Assembly: GCF_008629685.1 (NCBI RefSeq)
Contig: NZ_VWSF01000003.1
Coordinates: 346,795-410,794, forward strand
From: Adhaeribacter rhizoryzae
GTDB lineage: Bacteria > Bacteroidota > Bacteroidia > Cytophagales > Hymenobacteraceae
DNA: 64,000 bases
Reading direction: 5' to 3'
The notes beneath the pieces are model-generated. The model was given only the letters and a program-made list of their open reading frames with translations. It was not told the DNA's origin and made no database searches. The position numbers and the translations under genes were made by a program. Within the stretch, counting starts at the first letter, position 1. Each line of letters starts with the position of its first letter. Shown here one piece after another: positions 5,954-37,513 of this stretch.

Positions 5954-6314
5954 TGGGTTTTTCTTTTAGATATGGTTAGTCATTTATTCAATTTTTGTCA
6001 CTAATTACCACTTACTTGTGTGTAAACACCATTATTACTTTTAGCTACCCTTATCCTAAAATTTCAACTATATTATACTTACTAATATACAATATTTTTA
6101 TGTTAAAGTACAGTACTAAAGGGTGAGAGGATTATGTTTGATTTTCTAGGGAAAGTACAAGAAAAAGCCATCGAAAAATTGCCGCTCAGAATGCTGGAAA
6201 GAGGTTTCTGCTGATAACTCCTATTATCCTATGTTTGTAATGATGGTTATATTAGGGTAAAAAGAGAAGAAAGGAAGGAGTAAGATTTATCCTTTTATTT
6301 GGCCTGAAGAGCCT

Positions 6315-6458
6315 GTTTAACATGAGAATCCCTTTCCTTTTCTATGGTTACTTTGGACAGTTCCATTAAGCCTTTAGAGCTTGCATCAGGATAGAGAAAG
6401 CCACCATAGTCTGCTCTTTTCAAATTATTTTTCTTCCCTTTACTAAAAACTTAAAGTT
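6315..6458 (+). ncRNA. Candidate bridge (seek) RNA leader of IS110 copy A
   Basis: The 144-bp untranslated leader before the transposase differs from that of copy B at roughly 10 positions, about 93 percent identity by eye, while the coding part differs much more at synonymous sites. A 7-bp stem, CTATGGT (6342-6348) with ACCATAG (6403-6409), is kept in both copies and encloses about 54 nt. Inside are a short hairpin TGGA/TCCA and a GCTT/AAGC pair. IS110-family elements are known to encode a structured bridge RNA in a non-coding end that selects target and donor. Location and conservation fit; transcription and the loop pairing are inferred. Confidence 0.5.
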
Positions 6459-7439
6459 ATGGCTACCCCAGCCAAACCCAAAGTAGTAGGTATTGATGTG
6501 AGTAAAGATTCCTTAGCCATCTGCCACCTGGTAGAGGAGAAGGTGCAGCACTTGGAAATGGAAAACAGCAAAGCTGGCTTCCAGCAGTTGGTTAAGCAAT
6601 GCGGCACGGAGAGCCTTTATGTCATGGAGGCTACGGGTATTTATTACCTACAGCTGGCTTATTACCTGTATGAGCAGGGAGCACCGGTAGTGGTAGTGAA
6701 TCCGGTTATTATCAAGCGCTTCATCCAGATGCATCTGGGTAAGGGCAAGAGCGACAAGAAAGATGCCCAATGGATTAGGCGTTATGGAGAGCAGACCCAA
6801 GTGGCTTACTGGCAACCAGAAGAGCAGGTAATTGTGGAATGCCGGCAACTAGAGCAGCTTACCGAGCAGTTCATCAAGCAGAGGACTATGGTCATCAACT
6901 CCCTGGAGGCGCTGGAGCGGCAACCTGTGGTAAGTGAGCTCGCTGTTAAAAGTCTGAAGCAAACCCTCAAGATGCTGGAAAAGCAAATAAAGCAAATTCA
7001 GGATAAGTTACTGGTCACACTGGAAAAGGCTTTTGCGAAAGAGATAAAATTGCTCTCTTCGATTCCAGGGATTGGCAGAAAAACGGCCGGCATGCTGCTT
7101 TTATTTGCCGGTGGCTTTCGGAACATAACCAACTATCGGCAACTGATTGCCAAAGCTGGTTTGTCGCCTCGGGAGTTTACCTCTGGTTCTAGCATCCGCG
7201 GCAAGGTGCGTATCACCAAGATGGGCGGCAGCTTAATTCGAAGCAAATTGTTTATGTGCAGCTTCTCAGCTAAGGGGTCCAATGCGGCATGCAAAGCGCT
7301 CTACGAGCGGCTGGTAGCCAAAGGCAAGAATGGAAAAGTGGCTTTAATTGCGGTCTGCAATAAGCTCCTCAAACAAGCTTTCGCCATTGTCAAATCTTCC
7401 ATTCCCTACCGCCCTGATTTTGCTAATATTTCGGCCTGA
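6459..7439 (+). CDS. IS110-family transposase (copy A)
   Basis: The 326-residue protein has both halves of an IS110 recombinase. The N-terminal RuvC-like DEDD domain shows GIDVSK (Asp 13), VMEATG (Glu 57) and GKSDKKDAQW (Asp 99, Asp 102). The C-terminal Transposase_20 half begins with SSIPGIGRKTAG and carries SGSSIRGK near residue 242, where the catalytic serine is expected. All key residues are present and the frame is intact, so the element may be active. It differs from copy B at about 36 of 326 residues. The ATG at 6459 follows the conserved leader directly. Confidence 0.92.
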   Translation: MATPAKPKVVGIDVSKDSLAICHLVEEKVQHLEMENSKAGFQQLVKQCGTESLYVMEATGIYYLQLAYYLYEQGAPVVVVNPVIIKRFIQMHLGKGKSDKKDAQWIRRYGEQTQVAYWQPEEQVIVECRQLEQLTEQFIKQRTMVINSLEALERQPVVSELAVKSLKQTLKMLEKQIKQIQDKLLVTLEKAFAKEIKLLSSIPGIGRKTAGMLLLFAGGFRNITNYRQLIAKAGLSPREFTSGSSIRGKVRITKMGGSLIRSKLFMCSFSAKGSNAACKALYERLVAKGKNGKVALIAVCNKLLKQAFAIVKSSIPYRPDFANISA

Positions 7440-7733
7440 AAACCTTGACTTTTAACACAGTTCATGTTAAACAAAGGTGGTTCTCTGGGTTTAGTTATAT
7501 TATAAAGAGGGACATTGGGTGAAGACTTAGAGCCAGGAAGGGCTAAAACACGAGTAGTCGTGCCAACAAGCGTAGCTTAATGGAGAGGTGAACCTTTACA
7601 CTATTTGAAGTTGCCGAAACTTAAAGCAGGTATGTTATTTGAATTACTGAAATATATCTTAAATTACTTCTATTAATATTGAAGGTGCCCAAAATTTGAG
7701 CTTGATTCCTCTTTCTTATTGGCAGATTAACGT

Positions 7734-9225: not shown

Positions 9226-10098
9226 TTACTGCATGGGCACCTCCTTTCCCTTCTTGGCTGTATAATAGTTTTTCCAGTGTCTCTTCAGCTCGCCGGTCCT
9301 GCCGTGTGCCTCCACCGGCGTGAGCATGTCCACGCTCGAGTGCGGGCGCTGATAGTTGTAGATGCTCACTGCCGTGGCCACGGCTAGCTGAGCCGCCGCC
9401 ATGTCAGGGTACACTGTCTCCAGGAGCTCCTGTTTGAGGACACCGTTCACCCGCTCGGCCAGCGCATTCTCCAGTGGGTCGCCGCTCTGGGTCATGGAAA
9501 TAGCAATGCGCCGATCCTGGAGCAGCCTAACATACCCTTGGCTGCAGTACTGAATACCCCTATCAGAGTGATGGATCAAATAACCTTGCCAGGGACAGTT
9601 AGCAAGGGCCATCTCCAGAGCCCGGATGCATCCCATAGCAGAAAGATCTTCATTGAGAAAGAACCCGACGATCTTGCGGCTGTAGGCATCGGTGATTAGA
9701 CTCAGATAGGCAAAGCCTTCCTCCAGGTGAATGTAGGTAATATCGCTCACCCATAGCTGCCCGGCCGCCTTGGGTACAAAACCCACCGTCAGGTTCTCGT
9801 ACTTGTGCAGCCAGTGACCTGAGAAAGTAGTCTGGGGCTTAGAGCGCCTTCGTTTCCTGACTAGCAGATCGTGCCCACGCAGGAGTTCAAAAAAAGCGTC
9901 TCGGCCTATTTCAATGCCATGATCAGCCATAAAAGAGGACATCATCACCAGCAACTTGCGCGCCCCCAGCCGCTTCTGCGTGCGACGAATTCGTAGTACT
10001 TCTTGCACAAGCAAGTCCTCTTGCAGCGCTTGCTGCTGCCTGGTTTTGAGATGCTGGTAGTACGCCTGTCTACTGTAACCAAACAACCGGCAAAGCAC
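9226..10098 (-). CDS. IS3-family transposase OrfB (DDE integrase)
   Basis: The 290-residue stretch from the first possible start (GTG at 10098) contains HTH_21-like CRLFGYSRQAYYQ and an rve integrase core with the DDE residues in LWVSDITYI, HSDRGIQYCS and DPLENALAERVNG. The same frame is open upstream of 10098 to the slippery site at 10155-10161, so the natural product is most likely the OrfAB fusion made by -1 frameshifting rather than separate OrfB. It cuts and joins the ends of the element. Confidence 0.92.
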   Translation of the reverse strand: MLCRLFGYSRQAYYQHLKTRQQQALQEDLLVQEVLRIRRTQKRLGARKLLVMMSSFMADHGIEIGRDAFFELLRGHDLLVRKRRRSKPQTTFSGHWLHKYENLTVGFVPKAAGQLWVSDITYIHLEEGFAYLSLITDAYSRKIVGFFLNEDLSAMGCIRALEMALANCPWQGYLIHHSDRGIQYCSQGYVRLLQDRRIAISMTQSGDPLENALAERVNGVLKQELLETVYPDMAAAQLAVATAVSIYNYQRPHSSVDMLTPVEAHGRTGELKRHWKNYYTAKKGKEVPMQ

Positions 10099-10133
10099 TC
10101 CAACTACTTGGAAGGGCGTTCTTTGCTCTACTC

Positions 10134-10469
10134 TCAGGATTGCTTGGTACCAGACTTTTTTAAGATGGGAGTTCCGAGTTCTTCCTCGGCTATAAGGATC
10201 GCCTCCTGTAGGGCCTGGTTGTAGAGTCTGGCTTTGCGTAGCTCCGATTGCAGGGTCTCGACATTGGTCGGCAGCTTGTCTGTGGGCAGTTCCCGCAGCA
10301 GCCTGGCTCTTCTGATTTTGTGTGGTTTTTTCATGCGCCCTTGGTACTCTTTAACCCAACGGTGCAGGCTACGGTAATCAACTCCACATCTATCGGCCAC
10401 TTCTCGATAGCTCTGCCCGGAGGTGAGATACTCTGCTACAATACGTTCTCTTAATGCTTTGTCCTTCAT
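10134..10469 (-). CDS. IS3-family transposase OrfA (HTH)
   Basis: OrfA carries a helix-turn-helix with YLTSGQSYREVADRCGVDYR and a leucine-rich coiled segment (LQSELRKARLYNQALQEAIL), as usual for the DNA-binding part of IS3 transposases. I place the start at the ATG at 10469; a TTG 21 bases further upstream lies within the terminal repeat and is less likely. The protein ends at a TGA at 10134, a few codons after the A-AAA-AAG slippery heptamer. Confidence 0.88.
   Translation of the reverse strand: MKDKALRERIVAEYLTSGQSYREVADRCGVDYRSLHRWVKEYQGRMKKPHKIRRARLLRELPTDKLPTNVETLQSELRKARLYNQALQEAILIAEEELGTPILKKSGTKQS
10155..10161 (-). other. Programmed -1 frameshift heptamer A-AAA-AAG
   Basis: On the minus strand OrfA reads TTA AAA AAG, giving the classical X-XXY-YYZ heptamer A AAA AAG. 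Slipping back one base gives KKVWYQAILRVEQRTPF and then runs without a stop into OrfB (GVLCRLFGYS). This is the standard mechanism for making the IS3 OrfAB transposase. Confidence 0.8.
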
Positions 10470-10508
10470 TTTCGTTGACTTTTTTGTCAACCTATTTCAG
10501 GACTAGAC

Positions 10509-15157: not shown

Positions 15158-15450
15158 CTTTATTTTGAGAAAAGGTTCCGCTTGGTTAGGCACTTAATGC
15201 AGCCTGAAGCGCAATAGAATAGTAAAAGTCAATATAGAAAGAAATGATATAATTTCCTTTTTGCCATAGTATCATTTATTTAAACAGCCCCACTGGAGAG
15301 CATTAACGCAGTCCTTTCCTGCTGTTCTATAGAGGCAGCCCATTTAGCTTATAACAGATGTTATCCTATGTTTGCTTTAGATGATTAACTTGTATAAAAG
15401 AGAAAAAAGGAAGGAGTAAGATTTAAGCTGTTATTTGGTCTTGAGAACCT

Positions 15451-15591
15451 GTTTAACATGATAATCCCCTTTCTTTTCTATGGTTACTTTGGACAGTTCC
15501 ATTAAGCCTAGAGCTTGCATCAGGATAGAGAAAGCTACCATAGTCTGCTCTTTTCAACTTATTTTCTTCCCTTTACTAAACGCTTAAAGTT
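15451..15591 (+). ncRNA. Candidate bridge (seek) RNA leader of IS110 copy B
   Basis: The leader keeps the 7-bp stem CTATGGT (15478-15484) with ACCATAG (15537-15543) and the inner elements of copy A, including a slightly better AGCTT/AAGCT pair. Differences from copy A are concentrated just after the left inverted-repeat arm and near the start codon, plus a 2-nt deletion in the enclosed region. See copy A for the reasoning; function is inferred. Confidence 0.5.
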
Positions 15592-16572
15592 ATGGCCACC
15601 TCAGTAAAACAAAAAGTAATAGGTATTGATGTGAGTAAAGATTCCCTGGCTATCTGCCACCTGGCAGAGGAGAAAGTGCAGCACCTGGAGACGGAAAATA
15701 ACCAGACTGGCTTCAAGCAGTTAATTAAGCAATGTGGCACCGAGAGCTTGTATGTGATGGAAGCCACCGGCATCTATTATCTGCAACTGGCCTATTACCT
15801 ACATGAGCAAGGAGCGCAAGTAGTAGTGGTGAATCCGGTTATTATCAAGCGCTACATTCAGATGCACTTAGGCAAAGGCAAGAGCGACAAGAAAGATGCG
15901 CAGTGGATTAGACGCTATGGCGAGCAGACCCAAGTAGCTTTCTGGCAACCAGAAGAGCAGGTAATCGTGGAATGCCGGCAGCTGGAGCAGGTTATTGAGC
16001 AACTCATCAAGCAAAAAACCATGATCATCAACTCCCTGGAAGCACTCGAAAGACAACCAGTCAAGAGTCAGTTGGCAGCCAAAAGCTTGAAACAAACGCT
16101 TATGACACTTGAAAAGCAGATAAAGCAATTGGAGGAGCAACTACTTGATAATTTAGAAAAAGCTTTTGCCCAGGAGATAAAACTACTTTCTTCTATTCCG
16201 GGTATTGGCAGAAAGACCGCGGGCATGCTGCTTTTATTTGCCGAGGGCTTTCGGAACGTAACTAACTATCGACAGCTAATTGCTAAAGCCGGTTTATCAC
16301 CCCGGGAGTATACCTCCGGTTCGAGCATCCGAGGGAAGGTGCGCATCACTAAGATGGGCGGCAGCTTAATTCGAAGCAAATTGTTTATGTGCAGCTTCTC
16401 GGCTAAGAAATCCAATGCTGCCTGTAAAGCTTTATATGAACGGTTGGTGGCCAAAGGCAAGAACGGGAAAGTGGCTTTAATTGCCGTCTGCAATAAACTC
16501 CTCAAACAAGCTTTTGCTATTGTAAAATCATCCATTCCCTACCGCCCCGATTTTGCTAATATTTCGGCCTAA
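15592..16572 (+). CDS. IS110-family transposase (copy B)
   Basis: The 326-residue product is intact and has the same DEDD residues (GIDVSK, VMEATG, GKSDKKDAQW) and the SGSSIRGK serine motif as copy A. The C-terminal third is almost identical between the copies (about 4 changes), while the coiled middle segment, about residues 130-185, varies most. The gene is likely functional. Confidence 0.92.
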   Translation: MATSVKQKVIGIDVSKDSLAICHLAEEKVQHLETENNQTGFKQLIKQCGTESLYVMEATGIYYLQLAYYLHEQGAQVVVVNPVIIKRYIQMHLGKGKSDKKDAQWIRRYGEQTQVAFWQPEEQVIVECRQLEQVIEQLIKQKTMIINSLEALERQPVKSQLAAKSLKQTLMTLEKQIKQLEEQLLDNLEKAFAQEIKLLSSIPGIGRKTAGMLLLFAEGFRNVTNYRQLIAKAGLSPREYTSGSSIRGKVRITKMGGSLIRSKLFMCSFSAKKSNAACKALYERLVAKGKNGKVALIAVCNKLLKQAFAIVKSSIPYRPDFANISA

Positions 16573-16717
16573 AAAGCTTGACTTTTAACACAGTTCATGT
16601 TAAATTTCTAAAAACAAGTACTTCGGGTGCTTACTTGCTAAGGTGGATTAATGTATAGCCAGTTTTGCTGTTAACGTACAGAAAAACGGTAAAAGAGACG
16701 AAGTACTACTATTTACA

Positions 16718-37293: not shown

Positions 37294-37513
37294 CATAAGC
37301 CCTGAAGGGGCGTAATAACCTAGCCCAGGGTGCAGCCCTGGGTCCTGGGCAACAAACCAATATATTCAAAAGCCCTGAAAGGGCGAAATCCCTTCTCTAC
37401 TCACGCCATCTCAATATTAAATATTCTGCCCATTAAGGGCTTATAAAATATGTTTGCCTTTTTCGATGGGCTACACCCATCGCTGGGTTATTACGCCCAC
37501 TTCGGGGCTTATG
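37294..37513. repeat. Cluster of dispersed repeats with inverted outer arms
   Basis: The outer arms are CATAAGCCCTGAAGGGGCGT at 37294 and its inverted counterpart ending CGGGGCTTATG at 37513, over about 27 bp with two mismatches and one gap. Inside are AGCCCAGGGTGCAGCCCTGG (37322) and AGCCCTGAAAGGGCG (37371). This pattern is familiar from many Bacteroidota genomes as an intergenic repeat of unknown origin. The rest of the 37189-37758 spacer is AT-rich with no gene. Confidence 0.75.

What the first reader, a model, noticed from the sequence alone, without database searches (positions are those of the whole stretch)
6214..6458. IS110 leader conserved better than the transposase gene: candidate bridge RNA
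Seen: in two related IS110 copies the 144-bp leader before the start codon is about 93 percent identical, while the coding DNA is clearly lower, about 82 percent in the part I compared by eye. A 7-bp stem CTATGGT/ACCATAG is kept in both, with shorter stems inside. Known: IS110 recombinases use a structured bridge RNA from a non-coding end to choose donor and target. Inferred: this leader is such an RNA, with its target loops inside 6349-6402.
Basis: partly seen in the sequence, partly recalled or inferred. Interest (0 to 1): 0.7.

Follow-up and report, generated by a model that had tools for sequence, protein, structure and literature searches.

The report
IS110 bridge RNA aimed at dif-like sites
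The leader of this jumping gene very probably makes a guide RNA that steers it into the sites where the cell's XerC/XerD enzymes recombine DNA; such guide RNAs are already known, but I found no report of one aimed at this kind of site.

Summary
In detail: copies A (CDS 6459-7439) and B (15592-16572) share a 144-bp leader at 95% (ungapped) against 82.8% for coding DNA. Covariation in 48 leaders (97.1% of cells paired, 19 of 28 pairs with changes on both sides, 0/500 shuffles as high) and guides that co-vary with the flanks (0 of 20000 permutations) support an IS110-type bridge RNA. One detail is wrong: the loop inside 6349-6402 is the donor loop; its 5' strand matches the element's own right end (48 of 50 exact). 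The target loop lies just upstream (6269-6341). New: in A, B and many relatives the target is a dif-like XerCD site, ATAA-N6-TTAT^GTTAA (14 of 50 sites within one mismatch, 23 within three). ATAA lies outside the guide, yet is there in 16 of 55 (0.9% at other offsets). The same pattern marks the presumed chromosomal dif (spacer TTTATA, one copy in 49 of the 54 listed genomes). None of 55 insertions is in that form. I found no IS110 element described as targeting dif. Transcription and activity are untested.

The parts
6214..6227 (+). left half of the occupied dif-like target: ATAA (end of XerC arm) + spacer CTCCTA + TTAT (start of XerD arm); last two bases AT = core
   Evidence: sequence; unoccupied relatives of this site in the own genome; presumed chromosomal dif pattern
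6228..7463 (+). IS110-type element, copy A, without the core dinucleotide (one AT at 6226-6227, the other at 7464-7465)
   Evidence: boundaries from alignment of own-genome copies and unoccupied target copies
6228..6237 (+). left end CCTATGTTTG; contains TATGTTTG, a -7-like box of a promoter that would form when the ends join in the circle
   Evidence: CCTATG invariant in 48 leaders (leaders were chosen by this end); spacing to the TTGA of the right end constant in 35 of 36
6269..6341 (+). target-binding stem-loop: outer stem 6269-6278/6332-6341, inner stem 6300-6303/6311-6314
   Evidence: helix 1 99.8% of cells paired with 8 of 10 pairs changed on both sides; helix 2 94.8%, 3 of 4 (coordinates)
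6288..6298 (+). left target guide TATCCTTTTAT; 8 of 10 match to the left flank CTCCTATTAT
6315..6323 (+). right target guide GTTTAACAT, complement of ATGTTAAAC at the right flank
6357..6363 (+). left donor guide ACAGTTC, same letters as the right end of the element (7457-7463)
   Evidence: exact in 48 of 50 elements, three variants in step
6388..6392 (+). right donor guide AGGAT, complement of core AT + CCT of the left end
   Evidence: present in 55 of 55, so no covariation test
6459..7439 (+). DEDD recombinase, 326 aa, D13 E57 D99 D102 S242
   Evidence: PF01548 and PF02371 above cut-off; IS621 8wt6 E=7.8e-38; residues placed by that alignment
7444..7463 (+). right end CTTGACTTTTAACACAGTTC: left donor plus TTGACTTTTAA, which may be a -33/-35-like box and also resembles a XerC arm
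7464..7472 (+). core AT and right half of the target, GTTAAAC (rest of the XerD arm)
15365..16596 (+). copy B of the element; its RNA 15365-15557, CDS 15592-16572, target ATAA-CAGATG-TTAT / GTTAAAT

Best explanation
The leader encodes a bridge RNA of an IS110-group element. Its first stem-loop (target loop, 6269-6341) reads the target: the LTG has the letters of the left target strand and the RTG is complementary to the right one. The DEDD/Ser recombinase uses this RNA to exchange strands at a 2-bp core, mostly AT, without duplicating further target bases. In A, B and many relatives the guide is set to dif-like XerCD sites, so the element enters the XerD arm between TTAT and GTTAA. Part of the specificity comes from the 6-nt spacer between the Xer arms. 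Shown by sequence: the structure, the guide-flank and guide-end matches, and the form of the target. Inferred: that the RNA is made, is bound, and directs insertion, and that XerC/XerD act on these sites.
For: Structure: 28 pairs on 48 leaders, 97.1% of cells paired (shuffled 88.3), 127 double-change cells (shuffled 32), covariation score 0.355 (shuffled 0.180), 0/500 on each measure; sliding partners by 1-3 columns lowers pairing to 43-66%. Target guides: LTG/LT mean 7.15 of 10 vs 5.02 permuted, 55 sites; 7.29 vs 4.98 for 45 distinct guides; 7.50 vs 4.38 for 20 distinct-guide elements at non-dif sites, each 0/20000, real and permuted pairs both scored at the best of three registers. RTG/RT 5.02 of 7 vs 3.63, 50 sites; 4.96 vs 3.14 for 24 distinct guides, 0/20000, with 82-94% identity at the five bases after the core and 20-36% beyond. 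Close pairs change together: L190/L195 and L024/L187. Donor guide exact in 48 of 50, including 7 with CCG and 3 with GAG. A model built on these leaders finds the RNA at full length just upstream of 20 of 23 transposases of 40-48% identity at E<=2.2e-7; the other three are weaker, E 2.6e-5 to 1e-3, one of them partial. dif target: unoccupied sites of the same form in the own genome, 19 vs 5 for the reversed pattern; ATAA outside the guide in 16/55, 13/45 distinct guides, against 0.9% at other offsets; spacer TTTATA once in 49 of the 54 genomes listed; XerD arm TTATGTTAAAT/TTATGTTAATT as in pdif sites (passages of PMC10132070).
Against: No transcript, binding or transposition data. RDG is invariant, so its pairing cannot be tested by covariation. 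Among dif-like elements the spacer match is weaker (7.0 vs 6.23, 12/20000), and 3 of 15 guides fit the chromosomal spacer better than their own site. With three mismatches allowed, the first dif-like pattern is no commoner in the own genome than its reversed control (164 vs 156); only the exact pattern is. The 5' stem-loop of IS621 is not supported (9 of 48 at p<=0.1). The position of the presumed chromosomal dif at the terminus could not be shown by GC skew. The donor covariation rests on few independent changes. Of three relatives at 28-32% identity, the RNA model finds one (L051, E 2.2e-4), one doubtful (L053, E 0.09), one not (L054).
Confidence: 0.9

Rival explanations
1. The leader is conserved because it holds the promoter, ribosome-binding region and end sequences bound by the transposase as DNA; the stems are incidental.
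For: The left end CCTATGTT is strongly conserved and the joined ends would form TTGA-19 nt-TATGTTTG. Folding energies are ordinary.
Against: Double changes that keep pairs, 127 cells vs 32 shuffled; guide segments vary with the flanks rather than being conserved.
Confidence: 0.04
2. One reading: the loop inside 6349-6402 reads the target.
For: It is the best conserved stem-loop between A and B (donor half 98.8%) and has two internal strands.
Against: Its 5' strand matches the element's own right end in 48 of 50 and changes with it, and it is conserved between elements with different targets; the upstream loop carries the variable, flank-matching guides.
Confidence: 0.02
3. The dif-likeness is accidental: the guide happens to read TTATGTTAA-like AT-rich sites.
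For: 27 of 50 sites have four or more mismatches to the dif pattern, and on the tree the kind of site occupied changes often.
Against: ATAA, which the guide does not read, is at the exact XerC position in 16/55 and is rare at other offsets. Window copy A lies in a repeat with unoccupied dif-like copies.
Confidence: 0.07

Closest known systems
IS621 (IS110 group) bridge RNA, E. coli
   Same: RNA in the left non-coding end; target loop before donor loop; 5' strand reads left target/donor, 3' strand reads right target/donor; DEDD + serine recombinase; core dinucleotide; promoter formed by joined ends (abstract, five named sections and the first part of the extended-data legends of PMC11208160; passages of PMC11208158)
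   Different: core mostly AT instead of CT; no supported 5' stem-loop; promoter boxes resemble the Bacteroidetes TTTG/TAnnTTTG type (passage of PMC7366714), the -7 box exact in 20 of 50; target is dif-like
ISEc21 / IS1111 seekRNAs
   Same: same mechanism under another name; for ISEc21 upstream NCR and the same order of target matches (two sections of PMC11187229)
   Different: ISEc21 targets an IS3 transposase gene; IS1111 elements usually carry the RNA downstream with reversed order
IS1202 family (ISAjo2, ISAba71), dif site hunters
   Same: target pdif and dif sites (abstract and passages of PMC10132070)
   Different: DDE transposase with TIRs and 5-bp duplications, 5 bp outside the XerC arm, no guide RNA known to me; ours inserts inside the XerD arm, without such a duplication
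IS1111-attC elements
   Same: IS110-family elements that hunt a site-specific recombination site (seen only as the title of reference 24 in PMC11208160)
   Different: target attC of integron cassettes, IS1111 group

Membership tests
IS110 family, IS110 group | PF01548 + PF02371 recombinase with DEDD and conserved serine | tested here: met
   residues by alignment to IS621 chain 8wt6
IS110 family, IS110 group | long non-coding left end, short right end | tested here: met
   231 nt vs 24 nt in A
IS110 family, IS110 group | no target-site duplication apart from the core | tested here: met
   paralogous unoccupied sites are contiguous TTATGTTAA; the empty form of the very same sites was not seen
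bridge RNA | two stem-loops with large internal loops, conserved by covariation | tested here: met
bridge RNA | first loop pairs with target (LTG bottom strand, RTG top strand) | tested here: met
bridge RNA | second loop pairs with donor (LDG, RDG) | tested here: met
   LDG co-varies, 48/50; RDG complementary but invariant
bridge RNA | 5' stem-loop | tested here: not met
   9 of 48 sequences at p<=0.1; not treated as essential because PMC11208160 describes diverse structures
bridge RNA | promoter formed by joined RE-LE | tested here: inconclusive
   TTGA[CT] in 36 of 50 right ends, 35 at the same spacing; exact TAnnTTTG box in 20 of 50; no expression data
bridge RNA | RNA expressed, bound by the recombinase, needed for recombination | not testable with these tools
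   needs RNA-seq and assays
IS1202 dif site hunters | inserted 5 bp outside the XerC arm with 5-bp duplication | tested here: not met
   insertion lies inside the XerD arm, no such duplication
XerCD dif-like target | two arms around a 6-nt spacer, XerD arm TTATGTTAA-type | tested here: met
   for A, B and, with them, 14 of 50 sites within one mismatch
XerCD dif-like target | recombined by XerC/XerD | not testable with these tools
   needs binding and recombination assays

The most novel reading that the evidence does not exclude
An RNA-guided dif-site hunter that repairs what it breaks: the bridge RNA aims the element at XerCD sites whose spacer differs from that of the chromosomal dif, and the element's right end (TTGACTTTTAA, followed by 6 nt and TC) acts as a spare XerC arm, so that insertion rebuilds a dif-like site, TTGACTTTTAA-CACAGT-TCATGTTAAAY, at the right junction. 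The module carrying it would then stay mobile by Xer recombination. In A and B the arm matches the presumed chromosomal XerC arm at 9 of 11 positions and the rebuilt XerD arm at 8 (A) and 9 (B) of 11. In coding-sequence 11-mers 8 or more of 11 occurs at 0.03%, 9 in none of 6944. The comparison was chosen after seeing the sequence. The arm is also kept in elements at non-dif sites (mean 8.26 vs 7.56, one-sided p 0.03, rows not independent), so a promoter box explains it as well.
Probability: 0.15. Interest if true: 0.85.

Novelty: new variant of a known kind. Interest (0 to 1): 0.55.

Why it matters
Bridge RNAs are the basis of a new class of programmable recombinases. This clade adds about 50 natural guide-target pairs, some with single-base co-changes, from a family whose main genus here, Hymenobacter, is not named in the main text of either 2024 discovery paper. 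A guide set to XerCD sites links RNA-guided transposition with dif modules, mobile gene units described in Acinetobacter plasmids. It raises a question that can be tested: does the guide discriminate by the spacer and so spare the chromosomal dif?

Tried and rejected
Integron attC as the target: considered because GTTAAAC fits the attC core site (motif recalled). An integron-integrase search of the own genome gave nine sub-cut-off stretches, the best two (105 and 98.8 bits, cut-off 265) in one 485-aa frame on contig C36; all 14 control genomes ring below the cut-off too. I fetched part of C36 but did not study it. The two-arm/6-nt pattern fits XerCD better. The target as a MITE or palindrome: not pursued further once the dif pattern was clear.

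Rfam: no family at the leader (the weak Xist/RMST hits are below gathering scores). Viral contigs: none encode a relative. GC skew to place the presumed chromosomal dif at the terminus: 20 samples of one genome, too noisy. 5' stem-loop: not supported. Single-sequence folding: uninformative. First dif-like pattern with up to three mismatches: 164 places against 156 for the reversed control. One listed paper with both 'dif site' and 'IS110' (PMC6053426) was opened at passages only and is unrelated.

Rows dropped: of 59 distinct upstream sequences, 7 had no recognisable left end and L177 and L189 have an altered left end and fell out. Five further insertion sites of leaders already present were added, giving 55. 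Five of these lack a recognised right end, so RT/LD counts are out of 50. L202 (internal 20-nt duplication) was left out of alignment A1 (48 of the 49 listed). In some searches L144 was scored on its inner left end, which is a copy of its own guide; repeat the left-side counts with the outer one. The RTG test was not affected. L155 and L205 were left out of the tree.

Full report
1. Observation. Copies A and B are two IS110-type elements 83% identical in coding DNA. Their 144-bp leaders are 95% identical over aligned bases. In 17 of 17 comparisons of A with others that I picked, the leader core is more similar than the whole CDS; but codon positions 1+2 alone are more similar than the leader in 11 of the 15 comparisons where I could count them. 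The own genome holds these two full copies; three right ends (C13, both ends of C29) and three left ends (C31, C32, C39) that stop at contig ends; and two remnants inside C32. Contigs break inside the element, so more copies are probably collapsed.

2. The set. Relatives came from one scan of genome contigs (best 80 of 96 kept), 204 genomes of the same family (40 with a match at E<=1e-60) and three sets of fetched stretches. After removing duplicates, 55 insertion sites with a readable left end remain, 50 with both ends (rows dropped are listed under Tried and rejected).

3. Structure. On alignment A1 (48 leaders) RNAalifold finds both stem-loops. The structure I named has 28 pairs: 97.1% of cells paired, 19 pairs with changes on both sides, 0 of 500 shuffles as high on each of five measures, and all slid controls far lower in pairing and double changes. 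The outer stem of the first stem-loop is the strongest: ten pairs, 99.8% paired, eight with compensatory changes. A covariance model of this alignment recovers the RNA just upstream of 20 of 23 transposases of 40-48% identity at E<=2.2e-7, in Tenacibaculum, Gramella, Mangrovimonas, Joostella, a Chitinophagaceae and a Cyclobacteriaceae MAG and others; the remaining three score E 2.6e-5 to 1e-3. In the own genome it gives A, B and the three contig-end fragments, then a gap (185.8, 180.3, three at 72.5, next 29 bits).

4. Guides. With the element's edges fixed by unoccupied target copies, the first loop's 5' strand carries the left flank's letters. The match is 69% at the core T, 91-93% at positions 2-4 and falls to 47% at position 10 and 4-7% at 11-12 (best of three registers). 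The 3' strand is complementary to the right flank over the five bases after the core (82-94%; beyond that 20-36%). Permuting flanks among elements never reached the observed means in 20000 trials for all sites, for distinct guides and for non-dif elements; within the 21 dif-like distinct guides it did so 12 times. Close relatives change guide and target together: L190 vs L195 (CGTTTG/CGTTCT on the left, AAAAT/AGAAT on the right) and L024 vs L187 (TTAGAGTAA/TTACAGTAA). The second loop reads the element's own ends: ACAGTTC, ACCGTTC or AGAGTTC in the loop goes with the same letters in the right end in 48 of 50. On the tree the GAG rows form one group and the CCG rows few groups, so independent changes are few. 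AGGAT is invariant and complementary to core+CCT.

5. Target. A's reconstituted site is ATAA-CTCCTA-TTATGTTAAAC; B's is ATAA-CAGATG-TTATGTTAAAT. A sits in a dispersed repeat of which at least six unoccupied copies exist in the own genome; B's flanks resemble it only around the site itself. The pattern ATAA-N6-TTATGTTAA is that of dif/pdif sites (compare TGTTCGTATAA TGTATA TTATGTTAAAT of A. baumannii; passage of PMC10132070). It occurs 19 times in the own genome against 5 for the reversed control, and in 198 of 204 genomes of the family. The list of places is capped and covers 54 of the 204 genomes. By my reading of it, 49 of these 54 have exactly one copy with spacer TTTATA: two have TATATA instead, two have none, one listing is cut. 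I take that copy as the chromosomal dif, consensus TTGTCTTATAA TTTATA TTATGTTAAGT (18 distinct sequences). Its terminus position was not shown. ATAA, which the guide does not read, is at the XerC position in 16 of 55 left flanks (13 of 45 distinct guides) and at about 0.9% of other offsets. Of 50 sites, 9 match all 13 fixed positions, 14 have at most one and 23 at most three mismatches. No left flank reads TTTATATTAT (0 of 55). Among 15 dif-like elements the guide fits the own spacer better than TTTATA in 10, equally in 2, worse in 3, so sparing of the chromosomal site is suggested, not shown.

6. Retargeting. On a transposase tree the label 'at most three mismatches to dif' needs 8 changes, at least 5 forced by well-supported branches. 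Two label differences, L192/L194 and L220/L180, lie between elements with the same guides and reflect the cut-off and the site occupied, so fewer are changes of the guide. dif-like targets occur both among the nearest relatives of A and B and among the Hymenobacter-type elements.

7. Expression. The joined ends would give TTGA-19 nt-TATGTTTG in A (36 of 50 right ends have TTGA[CT], 35 at identical spacing; the left box is TATGTTTG in 20, TATGTTCG in 16, TATGTTCA in 13 and TATGTTTA in 1 of 50), close to the Bacteroidetes TTTG/TAnnTTTG promoter (passage of PMC7366714). The same right-end letters, TTGACTTTTAA, resemble a XerC arm exactly one spacer length before a rebuilt XerD arm. Both readings stay open.

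8. Relation to known systems. The recombinase aligns over its length with IS621 (8wt6, E=7.8e-38) and ISCro4 (9t56, E=3.3e-36), and the DEDD and serine positions correspond. Architecture and guide order are those of IS621 (named sections of PMC11208160) and ISEc21 (section of PMC11187229). I found no IS110 element described as targeting dif in the held library. Searches: 'dif site'+'insertion sequence'+'IS110' (4 papers, all listed), 'dif site hunters' (2), two of 'IS110', 'XerCD', 'bridge RNA' (15 of 21 listed), two of pdif, IS110, IS1111, XerD (12 of 102 listed). The seekRNA paper mentions dif site and XerCD only in its references, and the bridge RNA paper does not use the words 'dif' or 'XerC' in its main text. 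Unlisted hits, supplementary files and subscription papers were not seen, so this is not proof of absence.

Verdict: the RNA is a new member of a known kind. Its use to hunt XerCD sites is, as far as searched, a new variant.

Noticed in passing
L093, L096, L100, L101, L102, L116, L131 (own genome), about 230 bp next to the dif-like site; window copy A left flank: A conserved region lies beside the dif-like sites; in L096, L100, L101, L102 and L116 an unrelated gene starts on its far side, 203-239 bp from the site. This looks like dif modules with an accessory sequence; I know of no description, and did not search for one.
   Followed up: partly
L144/L007 (Pontibacter pamirensis) left end: A 70-bp tandem duplication runs from the left end to the left target guide; guide DNA and target share TACTGTTAT, so guide and target have probably recombined.
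   Followed up: partly
L017/L189 (Hymenobacter roseosalivarius) right end: The right end is followed directly by the left end of another copy, CACAGTTC-TT-CCTATG, a head-to-tail junction like that of the circular form.
   Followed up: no
window 37298-37342 (-): Rfam match to Acido-Lenti-1 RNA, 43.6 bits against a gathering score of 37.
   Followed up: no
window 9226-10490 (-): Two adjacent ORFs that look like an IS3-type transposase pair between the two IS110 copies (by eye).
   Followed up: no
L095, L097, L099, L103 (own genome; C11 both ends, start of C22, C34): Dif-like sites with spacer TTTTTG lie near both ends of contig C11 and the start of C22; L099 and the presumed chromosomal dif (L103) share some 50 bp of left flank. 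C11 may be a circular replicon or an element integrated at dif.
   Followed up: no
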